Both the position numbers and the translations under genes were made by a program. Shown here in pieces: positions 1 through 32,202 of a stretch of DNA of 64,000 bases. This stretch comes from Rathayibacter rathayi (GTDB lineage Bacteria; Actinomycetota; Actinomycetes; Actinomycetales; Microbacteriaceae): contig NZ_CP028129.1 in NCBI RefSeq assembly GCF_004011095.1, positions 2,480,001 through 2,544,000 of the forward strand. The letters are read 5' to 3'. Numbering within the stretch: position 1 is the stretch's first letter; every line of letters begins with the position of its first letter. The notes below the pieces were generated by a model that saw only the letters and a list, made by a program, of their open reading frames with translations, made no database searches and was not told the DNA's origin.

Positions 1-468
1 CTTCTCCCGAGCCATGCGTGGATTGGGAATCCAGTTTTCGCCGGCTAGCGTAGACCGGATTGCGTCTAAAGATGCGTGCCGGTAAATGTATGGAATCCCG
101 ATCTCTCCCACCGCACTAGCCAAATCTGCCGCTTGCTGCATGAAGGTTCCGTCGTTGATAAAGAACCACTGTCTTAACTCCGGGATGTCTGCGGCATACC
201 CAAGAGGAATGCTGATGGTCGGCAAAACGTGACGTTTGCGGGCGGGAGTTGAAAGGATCTTGTGGTAAGTATTTTGGACCTCGTCACAGACGACGCCTAT
301 AATCGGGTAGACGGTGCCGCTCTCAGAACTCCAGCCCGCACCATTAAGCCCTAGCCAGCCCTGCCATCCCTCAGATACGGCCAGTACTCTACTGCCGTTT
401 TTTTTCTCGAAACCAAGCTTTTCTAAATGGTACAGGCATGCAGCCTCTACCTCTTCCTTAAATAACAT
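1..468 (-). CDS. Candidate immunity protein of the RHS toxin (partial, runs off left edge)
   Basis: An open frame of 156 codons runs from an ATG at 468 to the window edge without a stop, so the C-terminus is missing. It starts MLFKEEVEAACLYHLEKLGF and has good codon structure throughout. AGGGTGA lies just upstream of the ATG and overlaps the stop codon (476-474) of the toxin-tip frame, so the two are tightly coupled. I do not recognise the family. Position directly behind a nuclease tip, small size, acidic N-terminus and clearly lower GC than the RHS core are what is expected of a cognate immunity gene. Immunity is inferred from position only. Confidence 0.7.
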   Translation of the reverse strand, partial: MLFKEEVEAACLYHLEKLGFEKKNGSRVLAVSEGWQGWLGLNGAGWSSESGTVYPIIGVVCDEVQNTYHKILSTPARKRHVLPTISIPLGYAADIPELRQWFFINDGTFMQQAADLASAVGEIGIPYIYRHASLDAIRSTLAGENWIPNPRMAREK

Positions 469-473
469 TCTCT

Positions 474-845
474 TCACCCTAAATCCCAATTATCTCGTTT
501 TATGTACATACTTCCAAGGGGTCGAGTAGGGTCGAGGCCAGCTTCCTCTGCTCGGAGCCCGACGGGTATCGCGACGCCACCCTGTTCGATCAGGGGGTAC
601 GCAATACTCTGGTTTTTCGTGAGTTTAGCGCGGAGGCCATTTTTTGCCTCAATAAAGTACAGCTCACCGGATGGTGTCCGGGCGAGGATGTCGACGCGTG
701 TTCTGACTCCTCCGGCGATGATCGTGATCTCGGTTCCGACGAGGGTATCGCCGCGTGCTTCGAGGGCTTCGATGGAGGCTTGGACGCCTCGTTGGCCTTT
801 CGCGACGAGTGCGGCGCCGGTGAGGCGTGGGCGGACGGGGGTGAG
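474..845 (-). pseudogene. Out-of-frame C-terminal nuclease toxin tip of the RHS protein
   Basis: In the frame one base away from the RHS reading frame, 123 codons are open from the C6 run at 845-850 to a TGA at 476-474. The peptide carries VDIL (Asp about 692), then FIEAKNG (Glu about 650, Lys about 644) and TKNQ. This is the D...ExK...Q pattern of restriction-endonuclease-fold toxin tips. It has no start codon of its own near its beginning, so it can be made only as a fusion to the RHS core. A seventh C in the reverse-strand C6 run (forward G845-850) would join it to the core as ...DDPPLTPVRP.... As sequenced, the core instead runs into a low-complexity Ser/Pro/Arg tail ending at 590. Nuclease activity is inferred from the motif. 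Confidence 0.75.
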
Positions 846-3800
846 GGGGGATCGTCGAGGCGTGTGGTGGGGATGTCTGTGCCGAGGCGGCGGGTGGTGG
901 CGCTGCCGAGTCCGCTGGCGGCGCCGGTGGCGGCTCCTCCTGCGGCTCCTGCGGTGGTGGCGCCGAGGAGTCCGGTGGGGGTGTGGGGGCCGGGGCTGGT
1001 GAGGTATTGGGCGGCTTTGGAGACGCTGCCGTCGGCGGTGTTGGCGATCACTTCGGCTGTGAGGGCGCTGGCGCCGGCGCGGTAGGCGAGGGCTTCGGCG
1101 CCTCCGCCGAGCGCGCCGACGGCGGAGTCGATGCCGACTTGGCCCCAGTTGACGCTACCGGTGGTGGCTTTCTGGGTGGCGACGGAGATGCCGCCGGCTA
1201 GGAAGGCTCCGGATGCGGCTCCGGCGAGGGCCATCCCGGCGAGGGTGCCAACTCCGGTGAACATCAGGGCGACGCCGATGGCGACGAGGGCGCCTGCGGC
1301 GACGTATTCCCCGTTGTTGGACCACCAGTCGCCGGCGGCGGCGAACGCGCCGTTGTTCCCGTCGCGATACGCGCGCAGGTCCGCGTCCGACACCGGCCGC
1401 AACCCCGTCGGGTCCACGGCGTGGAGGGGGTCGTTCCCGGCGTAGGAGTAGGGGTTCCCTGACCAGCCTGCGCCGGTCACCGCCTCCAGCGGATCCACGG
1501 TCAGGAAGCCCCGAGTCCCCGGATCGTAGGTGCGGTGTCCGAGCCATTCCAAGCCCGCGATGGAGAGGCCGCCGTTGGCGGTCAGGCCGATCCCGGCGGG
1601 CAGGTCGAGGCCGGGCGGCAGGCCCGTGTCAGGTCCGACCGTGCCCCACGGATCCTCCGCGGTTGTCGCGCGGTCGGCTCGCCACCCGGCGCTGGTCCAG
1701 GTGTCGCCGATGCCGGTGACGCCTCCCGGGGTGGCGAGGATCGGGGTGTCGCCCACGGTCAGTAGTGCGGGCGCGGAGGAGGCGGTGTCCCACCACGTCG
1801 CGGCGCCGTTGATGGTGGCGAGTTCGCCGAGGGTGTCGACGTGCAGGGTCGTGGTGGACGTTTCGTCGGTGACGGCGTCGAGCCAGCCCGCGGCGCTCCA
1901 GGCGTAGGAGCGCTGGCCGCCGTCGCTGTCGGTGACGCGGGTGCGGCGGCCGAGGCCGTCGTAGAGGTATTCGATGCGGGTGCCGTCCTCGCGGGTGGTG
2001 GCGAGGAGTTGGCCTGCGGCGTCGTAGTTGTGGGTACTGGTGCGGCCGTCGGGGGTGGTTTCGCGAGTGAGGCGTCCGCCGGTGTCGTACCCGAACGTGG
2101 AGGTGCCGGCGTCGGTGCGGGTTTCGAGGAGTTGCTGGGCGTTGTCGTAGCGGTAGTCGACGCCTCCGCTGGGTCCGTCGAGGCGGGTGATGCGGCCGTC
2201 CTCGTCGCGGGTCACGCGGGTCAGCGACGTCCCGGTGCCCGCTGCTGTCCCGGTGCTGTGCTCCGTGATGAAGCCGTCGCGGTGCTGCCAGGTCTGAGCG
2301 ATCCCTCCGGCGGTCGAGGCGATCAGGTGTCCGGCGGCGTCGTACTCGAAACTCGCGCGGCCCAGGCGGGGGTGTTCGATCGCGGTGACTCTGCCGGTGC
2401 TGTCGCGTTCGTAGCGGGTGCGGGTGCCGTCGGGGCCGGTGACGGCGGTGCGGTGGCCGGCGGCGTCGTACTCCCAGGCGAGGCCTTGGCCGTCGCGGGT
2501 GCGGCGGAGGAGTTGGTCGCGGCGGTTCCAGGTGAGGGTGTGTTCGAGGGGTGCGCCGGGGCCGGTGTGGTCGGTGATGACGGCTTGGCGGGCGGGAAGG
2601 TCGCGGCGGGTTTCGGAGAGCAGGCGTCCGTCGGCGCTGAGGCTGGTTTCGCGGCCGGCGGGGTCGTAGGTCCAGGAGAGGCGGTGCCCGTCGGGGTCCT
2701 GCTGCCAGAGTTGGCGGCCGGCGGGGTCGTAGCCTGCGGTCGTGCTGCGGCCGAGGGGGTCGGTCGCGGCGACGGCGTGGTCGGCGGCGTCGAAGGTGCG
2801 CCGGGTGATGCCGCCGAGGGGGTCGATGATGACGGTGTTGCGGCCGCGCTCGTCGTAGTCGTAGCGGGTGATGCCGCCGACGCCGTTGACGGCTTCGACG
2901 AGTTGCCCGGCGGGGTCGTAGCGGAACCGGCGGGTGCCGTGCCAGCAGTCGCGGGACCACACGACGCGGCCGAGGAGGTCGTAGCGGTAGCGGGCGGTGC
3001 CGCGGCCGGGGGTGTGCCGGGCGGTGAGGCGGCCGGCGGCGTCGTACTCGCTCCAGCCGGTCTCCCCGGTGGGTCCGGTCCAGCGGATCTGGCGCCCGTC
3101 GGCGTCGTACTCGAGCGTGGTCGAGGCGCCGGCGGGGTCGGTGACGGCCGCGAGGCGCCCGCACCGGTCGTACTCGAACCGGGTGCTCGCGCCGGAAGGA
3201 GCGACTTGCTCGATCACGCGGCCCGCGGCGTCGCGGATCAGGCGGGTGAGGCCGCCTTCCTCGTCGACGAGTTCCACGGGGCGTCCGCACCGGTCGTAGA
3301 CGGTGAGGGCCGTGGATCCGTCCTGCGCCTCGGTCGCGATGGGCCGGCCGAGGGGGTCGAAGCGGGTGCGCGAGGAGGCGGCTCCGTCGGAGACGGCGGT
3401 GGTGTGCGGGTCGGTGAACACCGTGGCGCGGGAGCCGGTCGGGTCGATCAGGGCGCTGAGCGCGCCGTCCGCGTCGTACTCGCGGCGCCAGAGGTGGCCG
3501 GCGGGGTCGGTGGTCTCGGTCAGGCGGGAGAGCGCATCGTACGCGAACCGCCAGGAGTTGCCGTCGGGCAGCAGCGCGGCCGAGACGTTCCCGAGGTCGT
3601 CGAACTCCCGGGCGATCGCGCGGCCGAGGGGGTCGATGGTGCGGACGACGGCGCCGTGTTCGCCGTGCTCCATCACGGTGCGCGCGCCGAGCGGATCGAC
3701 GATCGCGCCCAGGCGTCCGCCTGCCTCGTATTCGTAGCGCCAGGTCGCGCCCAGCGGGTCGCGGCGGGAGGCGAGCAGGCCCGCCGGGGTGTAGCGGTAC

Positions 3801-5740
3801 TCGGTGCGCGCTCCGGAGGGGGACACCGCGGCGACCACCCGGCCCGCCTGGTCGCGCAGCAGCCGCGCGGTGTTCCCGTCCGCGTCGGTCGTGCTGATCA
3901 GATCCCCGAACGGGTCGTAGCCGAGACGGACGCTCACCCCCTCCGGGTCGGTGACCTCGACCAGCAGGCCGTCGTCCCAGGTCAGCTGGGTGCGTCCGCC
4001 CTCCGGGTCGATCACGACGCTCGGGGAGCGGTCCACGTCGGTCGCGTACTCGTAGCTGGTGACCCCGCCCTGCTCGGCGATGAGGGTCATCACCCGGTCG
4101 AACTCGTCGTAACCGCGGGTGATGTCCGCGCCGGAGGGAGTCTTCGTGCGCACCAGCCGGCCGCGCGCGTCGTAGGCGTGGGCGGTGACCGTTCCGTCGC
4201 GGCCGGTCGCGGAGAGCAGGTTCCCGGCGGCGTCGTAGCTCATCGACTGCCGCCGCCCCGCCGGATCGAGGATCCCCACCAGGCGGCCCCGGGCATCCGA
4301 AATCCAGGTGTTCGACCGGGATCCGTCCGCGTCCGAGACGACCGTCGCCCGGCCGGGCAGATACGCGTACCGGGTGGTGCGCCCGAACGGCGACGTCTGC
4401 GCCAGCACCCGCCGCTTCGCGTCGTAGCGGTTGCGGACCTCGACGACTCCGCCCGCGTCCGTCACCGACTCCAGCAGTCCGTCCGCGTTCCACCCGTACC
4501 GGCGCGTCCCGCCCGGGGTGGCTGCCGCGACCAGGCGTTCAGCGTCGTACTCGTACTCCACCCGGCGGCCGTCGGAGGCGTGCGCGACGACGATCCGCCC
4601 GCCCGACCACTCCAGAGCCACCCACCGGCCCCGCTCGTGCACCAACCGCGTCAGCGCGCCGTCACCGTCGTACTCGACGTCCACCCGCGTCCCCGGGCCG
4701 CTGCTCGCCGACAGCCACTGCCCACCCGCCGTGAACAGCCACCGGGAGCCGTCGTTCCCCGACACCACCAGCTTGTCGCCCTCCGGACCGCTCTCGCGGG
4801 TCAGCCACCGGCTCTCGCCCACGGCGCGGTCCCAGCCCTCGCCCTGGCGAGGGAACACCACCTCCCGCCCATCCGGGAGCACGAAGGTCGCGCCGTCGTC
4901 CTCGACCCGTAACCGCACCTGCGCCACCGAAGACCAGCCCGCACCGAACGCCCCCGCACGCTCATCGAGGGAGTTGTAGGTCCGCTCCCACCGCAGCGAG
5001 CCCGCGCCGCCGGGGAACCCCAGATCCACCTCCGTCTCGAGGAAGTTCCCCGTGCCCGTGTTCACCGGATCATCCGCGTACCCGGACGTGGGCGGCGCCC
5101 CATACGCCTGCGCAGCAGTGATCGTGATGTCCTCCCGCGACAGCGCCACCCCCGCCGACCCCAGCGCGAGGGCCAGCGCACTGTCCGCGTCCAGCGACCC
5201 CCACCGGCACTGGTCCGCGAAATCCGTCAGCAGTCCCCGCAGCTGTCCCGGACGCTCCCGCAGCTCGTCGTTCGCCGCCGACGACGCATCCGCGAACACC
5301 CGCAGATCCTCCGGCCGCGCAGACGACGTCCCCCCACCCATCCCGCCGCCACCCGGCGCCGGAGTCTGACGCGCCCCCACCGCCCCCTGCTCGATCGGGA
5401 TCGACACCGGATCGGCCGCAGGCCCCACCGGCGGATCCTCCTCGCCGAACAACGCCGCACCGACCTGCTCGAACAGGTTCCGGGACTCCTGCTCCCGCTT
5501 CCACTCCCGCGCCAGCACCCGCCGCTCACCAGTGGCCGGGCTCGTCCGTTCCGAGCGGATGTCGCGCTTGCCGAGCGTCGAGAACCCCGGGCGGAACTCG
5601 AGAGCGGAGCACACGTCGCGGCGATGCGACGCGCCCGGGCTGCACGAGCACGGGATCAGCAAGAGGGGATCGTGAGATTCGCTCGGACGACTAGGCGACT
5701 GCCTGGTGGAGGCGGCGCGATCCGTGCCGGAATGCGCCAC
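590..5740 (-). CDS. RHS/YD-repeat polymorphic toxin core, C-terminus frameshifted
   Basis: This is a 1716-residue protein with an N-terminal leader region, a DUF6531-like start of the cage (NTGTGNFLETEVDLGFPG, about residue 230), some 1000 residues of YD repeats (RYDxxGRL, YEYDxxGR) and the hyperconserved RHS end DPLHAVDPTGL near residue 1445. A glycine/alanine-rich hydrophobic pretoxin stretch follows. RHS proteins form a shell around a C-terminal toxin used against competitors. After about residue 1631 the frame becomes a Ser/Pro/Arg/His tail unlike a folded domain, while the nuclease tip continues in another frame (474-845). The start is uncertain: the first 70 residues look non-coding, and a GTG at 5518 (VLAREWKREQ) is a plausible alternative. 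No secretion gene adjoins it. Confidence 0.85.
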   Translation of the reverse strand: MAHSGTDRAASTRQSPSRPSESHDPLLLIPCSCSPGASHRRDVCSALEFRPGFSTLGKRDIRSERTSPATGERRVLAREWKREQESRNLFEQVGAALFGEEDPPVGPAADPVSIPIEQGAVGARQTPAPGGGGMGGGTSSARPEDLRVFADASSAANDELRERPGQLRGLLTDFADQCRWGSLDADSALALALGSAGVALSREDITITAAQAYGAPPTSGYADDPVNTGTGNFLETEVDLGFPGGAGSLRWERTYNSLDERAGAFGAGWSSVAQVRLRVEDDGATFVLPDGREVVFPRQGEGWDRAVGESRWLTRESGPEGDKLVVSGNDGSRWLFTAGGQWLSASSGPGTRVDVEYDGDGALTRLVHERGRWVALEWSGGRIVVAHASDGRRVEYEYDAERLVAAATPGGTRRYGWNADGLLESVTDAGGVVEVRNRYDAKRRVLAQTSPFGRTTRYAYLPGRATVVSDADGSRSNTWISDARGRLVGILDPAGRRQSMSYDAAGNLLSATGRDGTVTAHAYDARGRLVRTKTPSGADITRGYDEFDRVMTLIAEQGGVTSYEYATDVDRSPSVVIDPEGGRTQLTWDDGLLVEVTDPEGVSVRLGYDPFGDLISTTDADGNTARLLRDQAGRVVAAVSPSGARTEYRYTPAGLLASRRDPLGATWRYEYEAGGRLGAIVDPLGARTVMEHGEHGAVVRTIDPLGRAIAREFDDLGNVSAALLPDGNSWRFAYDALSRLTETTDPAGHLWRREYDADGALSALIDPTGSRATVFTDPHTTAVSDGAASSRTRFDPLGRPIATEAQDGSTALTVYDRCGRPVELVDEEGGLTRLIRDAAGRVIEQVAPSGASTRFEYDRCGRLAAVTDPAGASTTLEYDADGRQIRWTGPTGETGWSEYDAAGRLTARHTPGRGTARYRYDLLGRVVWSRDCWHGTRRFRYDPAGQLVEAVNGVGGITRYDYDERGRNTVIIDPLGGITRRTFDAADHAVAATDPLGRSTTAGYDPAGRQLWQQDPDGHRLSWTYDPAGRETSLSADGRLLSETRRDLPARQAVITDHTGPGAPLEHTLTWNRRDQLLRRTRDGQGLAWEYDAAGHRTAVTGPDGTRTRYERDSTGRVTAIEHPRLGRASFEYDAAGHLIASTAGGIAQTWQHRDGFITEHSTGTAAGTGTSLTRVTRDEDGRITRLDGPSGGVDYRYDNAQQLLETRTDAGTSTFGYDTGGRLTRETTPDGRTSTHNYDAAGQLLATTREDGTRIEYLYDGLGRRTRVTDSDGGQRSYAWSAAGWLDAVTDETSTTTLHVDTLGELATINGAATWWDTASSAPALLTVGDTPILATPGGVTGIGDTWTSAGWRADRATTAEDPWGTVGPDTGLPPGLDLPAGIGLTANGGLSIAGLEWLGHRTYDPGTRGFLTVDPLEAVTGAGWSGNPYSYAGNDPLHAVDPTGLRPVSDADLRAYRDGNNGAFAAAGDWWSNNGEYVAAGALVAIGVALMFTGVGTLAGMALAGAASGAFLAGGISVATQKATTGSVNWGQVGIDSAVGALGGGAEALAYRAGASALTAEVIANTADGSVSKAAQYLTSPGPHTPTGLLGATTAGAAGGAATGAASGLGSATTRRLGTDIPTTRLDDPPSPPSAHASPAPHSSRKANEASKPPSKPSKHAAIPSSEPRSRSSPEESEHASTSSPGHHPVSCTLLRQKMASALNSRKTRVLRTP

Positions 5741-5785
5741 TCATCGGACGGCCGAAGTGCGGACGTCCGTCAGGGCGCGAGAACG

Positions 5786-5825
5786 CAGAAGTCGCGGTAG
5801 TCGAACGCGACTACCGCGACTTCTG
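5786..5825. terminator. Perfect 18-bp hairpin between reductase and RHS genes
   Basis: CAGAAGTCGCGGTAGTCG at 5786-5803 is exactly complementary to 5808-5825, with a 4-nt loop. It lies just after the aldo/keto reductase stop and before the RHS start on the same strand. There is no T tract, as is common in high-GC actinobacteria. Transcription termination after the reductase is the likely role. Confidence 0.6.
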
Positions 5826-5866
5826 GAGGTTCGGGGCCGAGAGCACGGGGGCCGAGAGCTCGCGGG

Positions 5867-6688
5867 TCAGGACTCCGTGTCGACGAGCGAGTCCAGGTGC
5901 GCTAGGTCCTCGGCCGAGATCGAGAAGTCGACGTCGGCGTTCTCGACGATCCGCGAGGGCGTGGTCGACTTCGGCAGCGGCAGCACGTCCTTCTCGAGCA
6001 GATAGCGGATGCAGAGCTGCGCCACCGACTTGCCGTACTTCTCGGCGATCCCGCGGATGTCGGAGTTGTCGAGCAGGCCGCCCGTCGCGAGCGGCGAGTA
6101 GCCCTCCACGAGGATGCCGTGCTCCCTGCAGTAGGCGGTCGTCTCGTCCTGGGTGTTGCCGACGAACCAGCGGATCTGGTTCGCGTGCGGCACCACGTCG
6201 GTCGCCGCGATCAACGACTCCAGATCGGCGACCTCGAAGTTCGAGACGCCGATGGCGCGGGAGCGGCCGGCCTCGAGGATCTCCTCCATCGCCTTCCACG
6301 CCGCGATGGTGCCCTCGCGATGGTCGGAGCCCCTGTCCTGCCACGGCCACGGCGCGTGGATGAGGTAGAGGTCGACGTGGTCGAGTTCGAGCGCCGCCAT
6401 CGTGGTCTCGAAGCTCGCCTTCGCGCCCTCGTCATCCTTCACCTCGGCCGGGAGCTTCGTCGTGACGAATACCTCCTCCCGCGGGACACCGCTGTCGCGC
6501 AGGGCGCGGGCGACGCTCGCCTCGTTGCCGTAGGCGCGCGCGGTGTCGATGTGGCGGTAGCCGGCCTGGAGCGCCGCGGTCGTCGCGTCGTACGCCTCGG
6601 GGCCGTCGGGGATCTGCCAGGTGCCGAACCCGATCTTCGGGATGGCGACTCCGTTGGACAGCGTGAAGGTGTCGGTCAGGGCGGGCAT
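5867..6688 (-). CDS. Aldo/keto reductase (2,5-diketogluconate reductase type)
   Basis: A 273-residue NADPH-dependent oxidoreductase of the AKR superfamily, predicted to reduce aldehydes or ketones in the cytosol. The catalytic tetrad is visible: Asp48 and Tyr53 in HIDTARAYGNE, Lys78 in TTKL, and His111 in LIHAPWPW. The nucleotide-binding end has GVSNFE and, further on, LPKSTTPSRI. Length is normal for the AKR5-like bacterial enzymes. The ATG at 6688 is chosen because GAGGAG lies 5 nt upstream; the longer reading from 6703 only adds MMRRD, which is encoded by that ribosome binding site. It stands alone between the sugar transporter and the RHS gene. The physiological substrate cannot be told. 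Confidence 0.92.
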   Translation of the reverse strand: MPALTDTFTLSNGVAIPKIGFGTWQIPDGPEAYDATTAALQAGYRHIDTARAYGNEASVARALRDSGVPREEVFVTTKLPAEVKDDEGAKASFETTMAALELDHVDLYLIHAPWPWQDRGSDHREGTIAAWKAMEEILEAGRSRAIGVSNFEVADLESLIAATDVVPHANQIRWFVGNTQDETTAYCREHGILVEGYSPLATGGLLDNSDIRGIAEKYGKSVAQLCIRYLLEKDVLPLPKSTTPSRIVENADVDFSISAEDLAHLDSLVDTES

Positions 6689-6786
6689 GTCTCTCCTCAT
6701 CACTTCGTTTGGTCGTACCGTGCCACGCTAAGCCGGCCGCGGCGCCCGCACGGCCCCCTTGCGCCGGTCGGGTTCGGCGCTCTGCG

Positions 6787-7695
6787 TCAGCCCTTGAACG
6801 CCCCGTCCATGATCCCGGACACCATTCGGCGGCCGACGAAGAAGAAAGCGATCAGCAGCGGGAGAGTGGCCATGAACGATCCACCCATCGCCAGGGCGAC
6901 GTCGATCGAGCGGTTGGCCTGCAGCTGCTTTAGCGCGATCTGCACCGTGAACAGCTCCGGCGACTTCAGGACGATGAACGGCCACATGAAGTCGTTCCAG
7001 ACCGCGGTGAACGTGATCAGTCCGAGCACAAATGCCGCGGGGCGGACCACCGGAAAGGCGATGCGCCAGAACAGCTGCCACGAGTTGGCGCCGTCGATGC
7101 GGGCGGCCTGAATCAGCTCGTCGCTGACCGTCGTGGACATGTGCTGCCGCATCCAGAAAATGCCGAAGGCACTGGCCAGACCCGGCACGATGATCGCCTG
7201 AAGGGTGTCGACCCAGTCGAGCGCCGAGACGATCAGGTACTGCGGGATGATGCTCAATTGCGCCGGCACCGTCATCGTCAGCAGCACGATCAGGAACAGC
7301 AGGTTCCGGCCCGGGAAGTGCAGCTTCGCGAAGGCGAAGCCGGCCATTGCGCAGAGGATCGCAGAGAGGAAAGCGATGCTCAGCGACACGATAAGACTAT
7401 TCAGCATCGAGGCGATGAACGGGACGGTGTCGAACACCTTCTCGGCGATTGCCATGAAATTCGTACCCGGATACAGGCGCGGCGGGATCGACGTGACGGC
7501 GGTCGCTCCGACCGACGCCACGACGAACATGTAGTAGAGCGGGAAGACCGAGACGACGACCGCGATCGCGAGGAACACGTACGTCGGCCAGCCGACTCCG
7601 CCGCCCTTGCCGCGCCGCTTGGGCAACGTCTTCGCGGTGTCCCCGGTCGCCACCGCGCGGGCCTGCGGGAGAGCCTGATCGATCACGTCGGACAT
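6787..7695 (-). CDS. Carbohydrate ABC transporter permease (MalG/LacG type)
   Basis: A 302-residue inner-membrane permease with a short cytosolic N-terminus and six predicted membrane helices. The EAA loop that docks the ATPase is seen as ELIQAARIDGANSWQLFWRI. Family: CUT1 sugar permease, MalG-like partner. The ATG at 7695 overlaps the upstream permease stop by one base (TGATG), so translation is coupled. No ATPase gene is in the cluster; CUT1 systems in actinobacteria often share one MsiK-type ATPase encoded elsewhere. Control is probably by the divergent LacI protein upstream. Confidence 0.93.
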   Translation of the reverse strand: MSDVIDQALPQARAVATGDTAKTLPKRRGKGGGVGWPTYVFLAIAVVVSVFPLYYMFVVASVGATAVTSIPPRLYPGTNFMAIAEKVFDTVPFIASMLNSLIVSLSIAFLSAILCAMAGFAFAKLHFPGRNLLFLIVLLTMTVPAQLSIIPQYLIVSALDWVDTLQAIIVPGLASAFGIFWMRQHMSTTVSDELIQAARIDGANSWQLFWRIAFPVVRPAAFVLGLITFTAVWNDFMWPFIVLKSPELFTVQIALKQLQANRSIDVALAMGGSFMATLPLLIAFFFVGRRMVSGIMDGAFKG

Positions 7696-8666
7696 CAGAC
7701 GGCCGCCTTCCTGGTGCGGGTGGAGAGGTAGAAGTTGAGGAGGGAGACAAGGACCACGATCACAAACAGCACGACGCCGATAGCGGATCCGTAACCGAAC
7801 TTGAACTGACCGAAGCCCTGCTCGTAGAGGAAGAGAGCCAACGTCTGGCACTGCCGGCCGGCGCCGCAGGTGAGGCCCGATTCGGGAGCCACCAGGAGCG
7901 CCTCCGTGAAGATCTGCAGACCGCCGATGGTCGACATGATCACAGTGAAGACGATGATCGGGCGCAGCGCCGGGATCGTCAGGTGGCGAAACTGCTGCCA
8001 ACTGGACGCGCCATCGACCGAGGCGGCCTCGAACATCTCGCGGGGCAGCGACTGTAGGCCCGCCAGGTAGAGCAGGGTGTTGTAGCCGAACCAGCGCCAG
8101 AAGACCATCGTCGAGATGACGATCCAGGAGCCGTAGTTGGTGGCGAGGAAGTTGATCGACGGCAGTCCGAAGATGCCGAGGAACCAGTTGATCAGGCCGA
8201 AGTTCTTATCGAAGATCTGAGCGAACACGATCGCGGTCGCGGCGACGGACGTGATGTACGGCACCAGCAGAGCCATGCGGAAGAAGTTCGCCCAGCGCAG
8301 GCGCGCGTGGTTCAGCAGGTGCGCGAGGAACAGGGCGAACAGGAGCTGCGGCACGGTCGAGATGATAAAGATGCCGAAGGTGTTGACCAGTGCGTTCCAG
8401 AATCGCGAGTCGGCGAAGAGTTGCTGGAAATTCGCGATTCCGATGAAGGTCTGCTCGCCGATCGGGTTCCAGTCGAACAGCGAGACGTAGAAGGTGAACA
8501 GGAGCGGGAACAGCCCAAAGACGATGAAGATGATGAAGAAGGGCGCGACGTAGGCGTAGGGGGCGATCCGCTCCGAGAGGGAGTTGCGGATCCGCGCGGC
8601 TTTCTGGACCGGCACGCTGGGCTGCTTGCGCTGCTTGCTGGGTGGTGCTGCTGTCACCGTTGACAC
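7695..8666 (-). CDS. Carbohydrate ABC transporter permease (MalF/LacF type)
   Basis: A 323-residue permease, the first of the two membrane subunits of a CUT1 sugar importer. About six to seven hydrophobic helices follow a basic N-terminus, and the EAA loop REMFEAASVDGASSWQQF is present. The start is a GTG at 8666, preceded by GGAGGT with 6-nt spacing; the much longer open frame upstream has no such site. It lies 74 nt downstream of the binding-protein gene, and its stop overlaps the next permease start. The sugar is unknown. Confidence 0.93.
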   Translation of the reverse strand: MSTVTAAPPSKQRKQPSVPVQKAARIRNSLSERIAPYAYVAPFFIIFIVFGLFPLLFTFYVSLFDWNPIGEQTFIGIANFQQLFADSRFWNALVNTFGIFIISTVPQLLFALFLAHLLNHARLRWANFFRMALLVPYITSVAATAIVFAQIFDKNFGLINWFLGIFGLPSINFLATNYGSWIVISTMVFWRWFGYNTLLYLAGLQSLPREMFEAASVDGASSWQQFRHLTIPALRPIIVFTVIMSTIGGLQIFTEALLVAPESGLTCGAGRQCQTLALFLYEQGFGQFKFGYGSAIGVVLFVIVVLVSLLNFYLSTRTRKAAV

Positions 8667-8740
8667 GGGAGTACCTCCGTCGAGAAAAGGGGGAGGGGCC
8701 CGGCGCCCAGGGCGCCGGGCCGCTCGAATGGGTGGGGCGA

Positions 8741-10015
8741 TCAGCCGCCGATGGCCTGCTGGGCCGTCTCGAGGGCGGTCGACCACGCCTTGTCGGAGGT
8801 GACATTGCCGGCCTCCAGCTCGACGAGGGTGTTGAGCAGTGCGCCGTTGATCGGAGTCGTCTCGGGTCCGTTGTAGAAGGACGGGAACTGCTCGACGGAG
8901 GTCGCCATGACCTCGCCGATCTTCGAGTCGCCGAAGAACGGATCGGTGTAGGACTGGACCTCTTCGCTCGCGACCGCCTCGGTGGCGGCGGGCAGCGTGC
9001 CCGAAGCCTTGAAGTGGTCGGTCTGGCCCTCGGCCGACATCATCGTCTCGATGTACTGCCAGGCGGCCTCGGGGTGCTCGGCGCGGGCCGGAATGGCGAT
9101 GACGCTGCCGCCCCAGTTGCCGCCGATGCCGGGGACGCTGGTGACCCGCCAGTTCCCGGCGGTGTCGGGGGCGTCGGTCTTGATGCCGGCGAGGATCCAC
9201 GAGGGGGCGATCGTCACGGCGAAGGCGCCGTTCGCTCGGCCCGGCGCCCAGCCAGAGGACCAGGCGGCGATCCCGGCGCTGATGCCGGCGTCCTTGGTGT
9301 CCACGGCGATCTGGAATGCGTCCTTCACCTGCGGGTTGGTGTCGTAGACGAGCTCGCCGTCGGGCGAGTAGTACTTCTCCGAGACCTGGTTGACGGTGGA
9401 GAAGAAGACGCTGGTCTCGATGTTGTCGACGAACGGCTTGCCGGTCGCCTCGGTGTACTTCTTGCCGGTCTCGATGAAGGACGGCCAGTCCTTCCAGAGC
9501 TCGGCGACCTCGGCCGGGTCGGTCGGCAGTCCGGCTTGCTCGAAGAGGTCGGCGCGGTAAGCGAAGCCCAGCCCGCCGACGTCGGTCGGGACGCCGACGA
9601 CGGAGCCGTCGTCAGCGGTCGCGGCGGAGGCGGCCCACGGCAGATACGTCGAGGCGACATCGTCCCCGCCCAGGGTGCGCAGGTCGAGGAAGTTCGAGCT
9701 GTTGGCGACGAACTGGGGCAGATCGTCGTTCTGGATCATGACCAGGTCGGGCACCTTGCCGCCGGCGAGCGCGGCGGTGAGGGCAGTCGCGGTCTCGGTC
9801 GTGCTGCCGACTTCGGAGAGCTTGATCTTCGCCTCGGGCATCTTCGCGAGGTATTCATCGACACTGTCCTTGGCATTAATGCCGGTGAAGGACCAGAAGG
9901 TGGCCTCGGCGTTCGGATCGTCGGAGGCGCCGCCTCCCCCTCCGGACGAGCACCCGGTCAGGGTGAGCGCGACTACTGCTGCTGCTGCGGCCACGGCCGT
10001 CAAGCTTCTTTTCAC
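8741..10015 (-). CDS. Sugar ABC transporter substrate-binding lipoprotein
   Basis: A 424-residue extracytoplasmic solute-binding protein (SBP family 1). The signal peptide MKRSLTAVAA... ends in the lipobox LTGC with Cys22, so it is a lipoprotein anchored outside the membrane. Body motifs such as PDLVMIQNDDLPQF, AGLPTDPAEVAELW and the NWGGSVIAIPARAEHPEAAW segment are typical of CUT1 binding proteins. It starts at a GTG (10015), with GAAGAGGA about 8 nt upstream. It is the first gene of the three-gene importer and faces the LacI gene. Substrate unknown; an oligosaccharide or glycoside is likely from the family. Confidence 0.93.
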   Translation of the reverse strand: MKRSLTAVAAAAAVVALTLTGCSSGGGGGASDDPNAEATFWSFTGINAKDSVDEYLAKMPEAKIKLSEVGSTTETATALTAALAGGKVPDLVMIQNDDLPQFVANSSNFLDLRTLGGDDVASTYLPWAASAATADDGSVVGVPTDVGGLGFAYRADLFEQAGLPTDPAEVAELWKDWPSFIETGKKYTEATGKPFVDNIETSVFFSTVNQVSEKYYSPDGELVYDTNPQVKDAFQIAVDTKDAGISAGIAAWSSGWAPGRANGAFAVTIAPSWILAGIKTDAPDTAGNWRVTSVPGIGGNWGGSVIAIPARAEHPEAAWQYIETMMSAEGQTDHFKASGTLPAATEAVASEEVQSYTDPFFGDSKIGEVMATSVEQFPSFYNGPETTPINGALLNTLVELEAGNVTSDKAWSTALETAQQAIGG

Positions 10016-31417: not shown

Positions 31418-31955
31418 TCACTGAATGGGTCTGTGGCGGTCTTCGCTCTCTCGAGCGGCGCTCCCGCGCCCTCGGCCGCCCGCTTTGTCCTCGCCCGCAC
31501 CCCCACCGCCACTAGCACCGTCGGCGCCGCCACCGCAGCCCGCGGTGGTAAACGTCACGGGAGACGCTTCGCTCTCCTCGTGCGTCGCCTTGAACGCGTC
31601 CCGCGGCGAGTAGCGCCAGGGTGTTGGCGACCGTCAGCCGGTCAGCCGTCGCCTTTTGCTTCTCCTGCGCCCTCGCAGAGACATTCACGGGGAACAGGTC
31701 GCGACGAATCGCGAAGTTTCCCGTAGAATCGGCGCCCACCGACTCGTCAACGAGAACATTCGTGTCAAGGTCCAGCCGCCCCTCACCGTCGTCATCGGTG
31801 ACGAATGCGAAGGCCGGTGCGCTTATCGTCACCGCGACAGTAAGCGCACCTGGACACAACCCTCGAACAAGGCGAGATCGCCGTGCCGAGTCTTCTGCTC
31901 CCGGGAAGCTGCTAGAAGCCGAAGCTCTGCGCATCCTGCGCGTCACGCTCAGCAA
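31418..31955 (-). pseudogene. Frameshifted secreted protein of the WXG100 cassette
   Basis: The first part reads a basic start RRSRLVRG and a hydrophobic stretch LCPGALTVAVTISAPAFAF (signal peptide), then TDDDGEGRLDLDTNVLVDES, and AIRRDLFPVNVSARAQEKQK. After about 31620 that frame becomes Arg-rich and stops at 31512. Another frame continues sensibly as DAFKATHEESEASPVTFTTA then GCGGGADGASGGGGAGEDKA, ending at a TGA (31420-31418) 24 nt before the DUF4176 ATG. One indel between about 31610 and 31650 explains this. The gene overlaps the WXG100 end by some 20-40 nt. It may have been an EssA-like or other secreted accessory protein. Confidence 0.6.
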
Positions 31956-32202
31956 TGGTGTCCGCGTACTTGTTCAACTGCTCGTTGATGTTCACCAGCA
32001 GATCCTCGAACTTCTTCACGCTCTCCGACAGCTGGTTGTACTGCACGAGATACGCCTGGAACGCCTGACCCCTCCACTGCTCAGCAATAGTCGAGTTCAT
32101 CTGGCTCACCTTCTGAATAGCCTGCTCGATCTCTTCCTTCGAGCGAGTGTAAACCTGAGCCTGCTGCTTCAGTTCTTCCGGCGTAACACTAATCTGAGCC
32201 AT
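31912..32202 (-). CDS. WXG100-family (ESAT-6-like) secreted protein
   Basis: A 96-residue two-helix protein: helix 1 ISVTPEELKQQAQVYTRSKE, the WxG turn EQWRGQAFQAYLVQY, and helix 2 SVKKFEDLLVNINEQLNKYA. This is a canonical WXG100 protein, a substrate and cofactor of ESX/type VII secretion. The ATG at 32202 has AAGGGA about 9 nt upstream. It is the first gene of the cassette. No EccC/EssC or membrane component is in the window. Confidence 0.9.
   Translation of the reverse strand: MAQISVTPEELKQQAQVYTRSKEEIEQAIQKVSQMNSTIAEQWRGQAFQAYLVQYNQLSESVKKFEDLLVNINEQLNKYADTIAERDAQDAQSFGF

What the first reader, a model, noticed from the sequence alone, without database searches (positions are those of the whole stretch)
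474..850. RHS toxin separated from its nuclease tip by one base in a C6 run
The reverse-strand RHS frame runs out of the cage into a meaningless Ser/Pro/Arg tail, while the neighbouring frame, open for 123 codons to 474, carries a D...ExK...Q nuclease pattern and abuts an immunity-like gene. One extra C in the run at 845-850 restores the fusion. A homopolymer at exactly the cage-tip junction could be phase variation, a programmed -1 slip, a recent inactivation, or a sequencing error.
Basis: partly seen in the sequence, partly recalled or inferred. Interest (0 to 1): 0.85.

Follow-up and report, generated by a model that had tools for sequence, protein, structure and literature searches.

The report
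Decayed RHS toxin gene, nuclease tip
This is a copy of a large bacterial RHS gene whose nuclease-like tip is out of frame and whose front end and an inner segment are missing compared with relatives; because a second R. rathayi record shows the same damage, it is likely a retired toxin gene rather than a switch or a sequencing error.

Summary
On the minus strand the RHS frame ends at 590 in an off-frame tail; the -1 frame (845-474) encodes a 123-residue PD-(D/E)XK-like tip just upstream of an immunity-like gene. Compared with orthologues in two related Rathayibacter genomes, and with two paralogues in its own genome, it lacks the N-terminal region and 41 inner residues (123 bp, where the relative has cgcggacag direct repeats). 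A full-length R. tritici protein and both R. iranicus copies read linker into tip without a frame break; the R. iranicus DNA lacks the C6 run. A separate R. rathayi protein (P0008) has the same altered front end, the same 41-residue gap and the same off-frame tail, plus one more deletion. So the break is unlikely to be an error of this assembly, it is shared, and it sits in a gene that no tract length alone could make whole. Best reading: a decayed RHS toxin gene beside a still-open immunity gene. Phase variation and programmed slippage are not supported, though few strains could be compared. Ordinary biology; interest low.

The parts
5549..5740 (-). 5' part of the RHS ORF that matches neither paralogues nor orthologues, except a 32-base leader match at 5694-5663; it stands where relatives have about 130 N-terminal codons
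   Evidence: tblastn of RHS2 over window 1-9000 starts at residue 130 (window 5548), nothing better than E 0.79 before it; nucleotide match to L065 resumes at 5525
5181..5194 (-). scar of the 123-bp (41-residue) deletion; one copy of cgcggacag here, two copies flanking the extra segment in the relative L065
1415..5548 (-). RHS cage region: DUF6531, RHS repeats, RHS-associated core
   Evidence: PF05593 (24 stretches), PF20148, TIGR03696
1400..1414 (-). DPTGL cage-end (predicted self-cleavage) motif
   Evidence: sequence; motif as described in PMC8765631 passages
851..1399 (-). Ala/Gly-rich linker between cage and tip
   Evidence: 80% identical in R. iranicus C38
845..850 (-). C6 run where the two frames part
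   Evidence: absent from R. iranicus copies A and B
590..844 (-). off-frame tail of the RHS ORF up to its stop; shared by R. rathayi P0008
474..845 (-). nuclease-like tip in its own frame (123 codons and stop)
1..468 (-). immunity-like gene (start at 468 or 477), continuing outside the window
   Evidence: 53-59% identical genes follow both R. iranicus tips

Best explanation
The window holds an RHS gene that lacks the front end and a 41-residue inner segment seen in its relatives and has its nuclease-like tip out of frame, and it is therefore likely a dead toxin copy rather than a switchable or frameshifted one. The likely ancestral form, seen today as one protein in R. tritici, was an N-terminal region, the RHS cage, a linker and a PD-(D/E)XK tip, predicted to be released by self-cleavage and to cut nucleic acid in rival cells, with the next gene protecting the maker (inferred from homology). 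In the R. rathayi lineage the 5' coding part was replaced or deleted while a short leader stayed, 123 bp were lost between short direct repeats (the repeats are seen, the event is inferred), and the frame was lost at a short C run. Translation would now stop about 85 residues after the run, giving a cage with a meaningless tail and probably no export signal. The immunity-like gene stays open, which would still protect against relatives that carry the intact weapon (inferred).
For: Tip, linker and immunity are homologous to, and ordered as in, R. iranicus, where copy B is continuous from the C-terminal RHS part to the tip. R. tritici P0009 (1771 aa) is one protein from RHS N-terminal part to tip. 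Window RHS1 lacks the N-terminal region and 41 residues kept by RHS2 and RHS3 of the same genome and by the orthologues L065 and L066; direct repeats mark the deletion. P0008 of R. rathayi shares the altered front end, the gap and the tail, and has a further 41-residue deletion in the repeats. P0002, two sequences on contigs of at most 11171 bases, reads the junction as the window does, so a second assembly seems to agree.
Against: The cage frame is still open over some 1500 codons and differs little from P0008 (11 of 1529), and the internal deletions are in frame, so the cage may still be made and used. The immunity-like gene is open. The tip keeps its motif and reads dN/dS 0.36 against both R. 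iranicus copies, no looser than the linker (0.36). Only the window and one R. rathayi protein record could be compared inside the species; P0008's 30 member sequences were not opened. Whether the lost N-terminal region is an export signal is not shown: its WXG100 match in RHS2 is far below cut-off (E 0.072).
Confidence: 0.82

Rival explanations
1. Phase variation: tract-length changes at the C run switch the tip on and off in subpopulations.
For: The frames part exactly at a homopolymer, and the tip keeps its motif and codon bias.
Against: The same allele is seen in the window and in R. rathayi P0008. The run has only 6 units, one of 12 such C or G runs in the window. R. iranicus lacks the run. 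The gene lacks its N-terminal region, so no tract change alone gives a complete protein.
Confidence: 0.04
2. Programmed -1 ribosomal or transcriptional slippage at the run makes a small share of cage-tip fusion.
For: The tip frame is -1 to the cage frame at a homopolymer, and the break is kept in two sequences of the species.
Against: All 6 relatives with a readable junction are in frame without any slip, and the two with DNA have no such run. The front end is missing. Stimulatory structures and slippage rates were not tested here.
Confidence: 0.03
3. Sequencing or assembly error in the run.
For: Homopolymers are error-prone, and the finding rests on one base.
Against: P0008, a different sequence of R. 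rathayi (20 differences in 1615 aligned residues), has the same off-frame tail and end; P0002 reads the junction likewise. Both could in principle share the same kind of error; no raw reads were seen.
Confidence: 0.03
4. Parked cassette, an extension of the best explanation rather than its opposite: the gene is silent, but its tip and immunity module is kept and refreshed by recombination among RHS loci and could be moved onto an intact cage.
For: The genome has orphan linker-tip cassettes beside RHS2 (three) and linker pieces beside RHS3 (two), and a truncated second copy of this tip 31 kb away. The tail differs from P0008 far more than the body does (9 of 86 against 11 of 1529, Fisher p 2.4e-7), six of the nine in one block, as a conversion tract would leave. 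The Salmonella precedent for moving an orphan tip onto a main RHS gene is PMC3967940 (abstract and passages).
Against: No rearranged product was seen; in the own genome the tip occurs only here and as the remnant.
Confidence: 0.15

Closest known systems
Rathayibacter tritici RHS protein P0009 (named 'type IV secretion protein Rhs', 1771 aa)
   Same: Same cage (about 80% identity over the region searched), linker, DPTGL motif and tip (77%)
   Different: Tip in frame, 41-residue segment present, starts in the N-terminal region that the window lacks
Rathayibacter rathayi DUF6531 protein P0008 (1632 aa)
   Same: Same altered front end, same 41-residue gap, same off-frame tail
   Different: 20 substitutions in 1615 aligned residues and one further 41-residue deletion
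Rathayibacter iranicus RHS C-terminal modules on NZ_QGDV01000038 (L018/L019)
   Same: Linker, tip (77% and 71%) and following immunity-like gene in the same order
   Different: In frame; two modules on a 3.5-kb contig, the full cage not on it
Rhs family protein of PDB 7q97 (recalled as Pseudomonas protegens RhsA; PMC8765631)
   Same: The tip profile matches its C-terminal part (E 1.6e-5, 65 positions); the paper predicts its toxin domain to be a DNase (passages)
   Different: Type VI effector of a Gram-negative bacterium with a plug domain; intact
Orphan rhs-CT/rhsI modules of Salmonella (PMC3967940)
   Same: Silent tip fragments with immunity genes beside RHS genes (abstract and passages)
   Different: Here the tip stays attached to a long cage gene and is silenced by frame
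Listeria LrhA (PMC10327511)
   Same: DUF6531 plus RHS repeats in a Gram-positive bacterium, at a type VII secretion locus (passages)
   Different: Different N-terminus and tip; a type VII link is not shown for the window gene

Membership tests
RHS polymorphic toxin | RHS/YD repeats with RHS-associated core | tested here: met
   PF05593 E 1.1e-123, TIGR01643, TIGR03696
RHS polymorphic toxin | PxxxxDPxGL cage-end motif | tested here: met
   PLHAVDPTGL, DPTGL at 1414-1400
RHS polymorphic toxin | variable toxin tip in frame with the cage | tested here: not met
   tip in the -1 frame; met in R. tritici and R. iranicus
RHS polymorphic toxin | N-terminal region as in orthologues | tested here: not met
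   missing against RHS2, RHS3, L065, L066
RHS polymorphic toxin | immunity gene immediately downstream | tested here: met
   homologous genes in the same place after both R. iranicus tips; immunity function not testable here
PD-(D/E)XK (Tox-REase-like) nuclease tip | E, D, ExK, Q residues | tested here: met
   invariant in 6 of 6; signature as listed for Tox-REase-1 and -6 in PMC3482391 (passages)
PD-(D/E)XK (Tox-REase-like) nuclease tip | fold | tested here: inconclusive
PD-(D/E)XK (Tox-REase-like) nuclease tip | match to a named Tox-REase model | tested here: not met
   0 families for the tip in Pfam and NCBIfam at E 0.1
PD-(D/E)XK (Tox-REase-like) nuclease tip | nuclease activity | not testable with these tools
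   no assay
phase-variable locus | both ON and OFF alleles within the species | tested here: inconclusive
   window and P0008 both off-frame; no raw reads, P0008's cluster members not opened
phase-variable locus | tract length standing out from the background | tested here: not met
   12 C or G runs of 6 or more in 64 kb
programmed frameshift | slip site and split frames conserved among orthologues | tested here: not met
   6 of 6 relatives with a readable junction in frame

The most novel reading that the evidence does not exclude
The locus is not just dead but parked: frame loss keeps a nuclease cassette silent next to its open immunity gene, while recombination among RHS loci keeps refreshing the tip, so that the lineage holds a rotating reserve of tips that can be returned to an intact cage.
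Probability: 0.15. Interest if true: 0.45.

Novelty: new member of a known kind. Interest (0 to 1): 0.22.

Why it matters
It shows how an apparent switch at a homopolymer dissolves once relatives are compared: the same gene carries other losses that no tract change could undo. It also documents, in a plant-associated genus, RHS loci with orphan tip cassettes, an immunity-like gene that may have outlived its toxin, and a tip family with no match in the Pfam or NCBIfam copies searched.

Tried and rejected
Pfam and NCBIfam gave no family for the tip at E 0.1; for the immunity-like gene none at E 0.1, and for its relatives only a weak D5_N match of P0085 at E 0.26, below cut-off. The genome-contig scan confirmed 2 of 74 candidate stretches: R. 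iranicus and a short weak Ramlibacter match, which was not followed. In the family draw 2 of 398 genomes hold the tip, the own genome included; in the genus 2 of 15, likewise. So few strains could be compared. The protein search behind P0008 and P0009 scored only the 7995 candidates sharing most words.

Export route: WXG100 rings at four places of the own genome over cut-off, none next to this gene; a small protein upstream of RHS3 and a part of RHS2 match WXG100 below cut-off (E 3.8e-4 and 0.072). EccC (T7SS) gave five matches, none over cut-off, and the controls ring in 8 of 14 genomes, so a type VII route is a guess.

Selection: tip against R. iranicus dN/dS 0.36 for both copies, linker 0.36; immunity 0.08 against copy B with saturated dS, not computable against copy A; tip against the own remnant 0.61 over 94 codons. 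These mix time before and after the frame loss and do not decide. A 'third frame' column repeated the RHS frame by mistake; one search replaces it. Before the count of 20 differences in 1615 residues, the first 60 residues of the window ORF and the first 8 of P0008 were dropped; over the whole alignment the count is 1606 identical of 1632.

Literature: 'Rathayibacter' with 'Rhs' as whole words gave 2 papers; I read passages of PMC5552033, which names T7SS and RHS-like proteins of R. toxicus in one sentence, and saw only the listing of the other. The listings show no title on this locus. All other papers cited were seen as abstracts or passages only.

Full report
What is there. On the minus strand an RHS frame runs from 5740 to 590. 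It has DUF6531, 24 RHS-repeat stretches and the RHS-associated core, a DPTGL cage-end motif at 1414-1400 and an Ala/Gly-rich linker to 851. At a C6 run (850-845) it enters a tail with no Pfam match. The neighbouring frame encodes 123 residues, 845-474, followed at 468 or 477 by an immunity-like gene that leaves the window. Codon usage switches from the RHS frame to the tip frame at the run.

The relatives. R. iranicus contig C38 carries two tip modules, each followed by its own immunity-like gene. Copy B reads from the C-terminal RHS part through the linker into the tip in one frame; copy A is in frame as far as the contig reaches, and neither has the C run. R. tritici P0009 is one 1771-residue protein ending in the tip, 77% identical. 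R. tanaceti P0003, Arthrobacter P0006 and metagenomic P0046 (tip 48% identical) are continuous too. That is 6 of 6 readable junctions in frame outside R. rathayi; P0004, P0005 and P0007 begin too near the tip to tell.

Other damage. Against the paralogues RHS2 (L010, 1858 aa) and RHS3 (L011) the window gene lacks the N-terminal region: over window 1-9000 the match begins at RHS2 residue 130 (RHS3 residue 79), with nothing better than E 0.79 before it. It also lacks 41 residues. The orthologues in G402 (L065, 86% identical over 1229 columns) and G221 (L066) keep both. Upstream, a 32-base leader match survives at 5694-5663, then about 137 bases without match, and homology resumes at 5525. In L065 two cgcggacag copies flank the 123 bp that the window lacks; the window has one copy, the usual mark of a deletion between short repeats.

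Shared damage. P0008, an R. rathayi protein, differs at 20 of 1615 aligned residues (11 of 1529 in the body, 9 of 86 in the tail). It has the same altered front end, the same 41-residue gap and the same tail and end, plus one more 41-residue deletion within the repeats. So the frame break is unlikely to be an error of this assembly and predates the split of these sequences. P0002, on contigs of at most 11171 bases, also reads the junction as the window does; where those contigs come from is not shown. The tail differences are concentrated (Fisher p 2.4e-7), six of nine in one block, which would fit exchange with another tip copy; this is inference from a protein record.

Mechanism. Most likely an RHS weapon was retired in this lineage: without the N-terminal region it would probably not be exported, and without frame it carries no tip. 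The immunity-like gene stays open in the window. Orphan immunity protecting against non-self effectors has been shown in Serratia (PMC10539506, abstract and passages). A related record, P0085, has a different start that points to another length of the A8 run at 405-398; that would fit immunity beginning to decay as well, or an error in that record. The same genome keeps an RHS2 that looks intact, with three orphan linker-tip cassettes downstream, and a shortened RHS3 with two further linker pieces: the layout from which orphan tips have been seen to recombine onto a main RHS gene in Salmonella (PMC3967940, abstract and passages).

Against this reading. The body is still open and little changed from P0008, the internal deletions are in frame, and the tip is no less constrained than the linker against R. 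iranicus (dN/dS 0.36 each). The cage may still be made; a use for it is not excluded. Only two R. rathayi-type sequences were compared over the full gene.

Species. Its RHS protein is about 98-99% identical to the R. rathayi record over aligned residues, so I treat it as R. rathayi or very near.

Verdict. Observation confirmed; of the explanations offered, inactivation. Ordinary decay of a known kind of system; interest 0.22.

Noticed in passing
L016 9558-9845 (genome 2449558-2449845), minus strand: A second, truncated copy of the tip (residues 28-123, 82% identical, one TGA near its end) followed by a truncated immunity-like start, 31 kb from the finding.
   Followed up: partly
L064 2803-9027 and L010 1663-2541 (genome 1072803-1080541): Three orphan RHS linker-tip cassettes with small genes between them downstream of RHS2, with a transposase-like ORF (L064 5108-5887, named by eye) inside the array.
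   Followed up: partly
L011 1459-4144 and 4126-6405: RHS3 is cut short after part of the repeats and followed by linker and tip pieces; a WXG100-like small protein (below cut-off) lies upstream at 6492-6767.
   Followed up: partly
P0085 and window 405-398, minus strand: A related immunity-like record has a different N-terminus consistent with another length of an A8 run near the start of the gene.
   Followed up: partly
L009 10364-11201 (genome 2478364-2479201), minus strand: Two overlapping ORFs that look like an IS3-type transposase (named by eye) lie just beyond the immunity-like gene.
   Followed up: no
window 31942-32196, minus strand: A WXG100 protein over Pfam's cut-off, one of four in the genome.
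   Followed up: no
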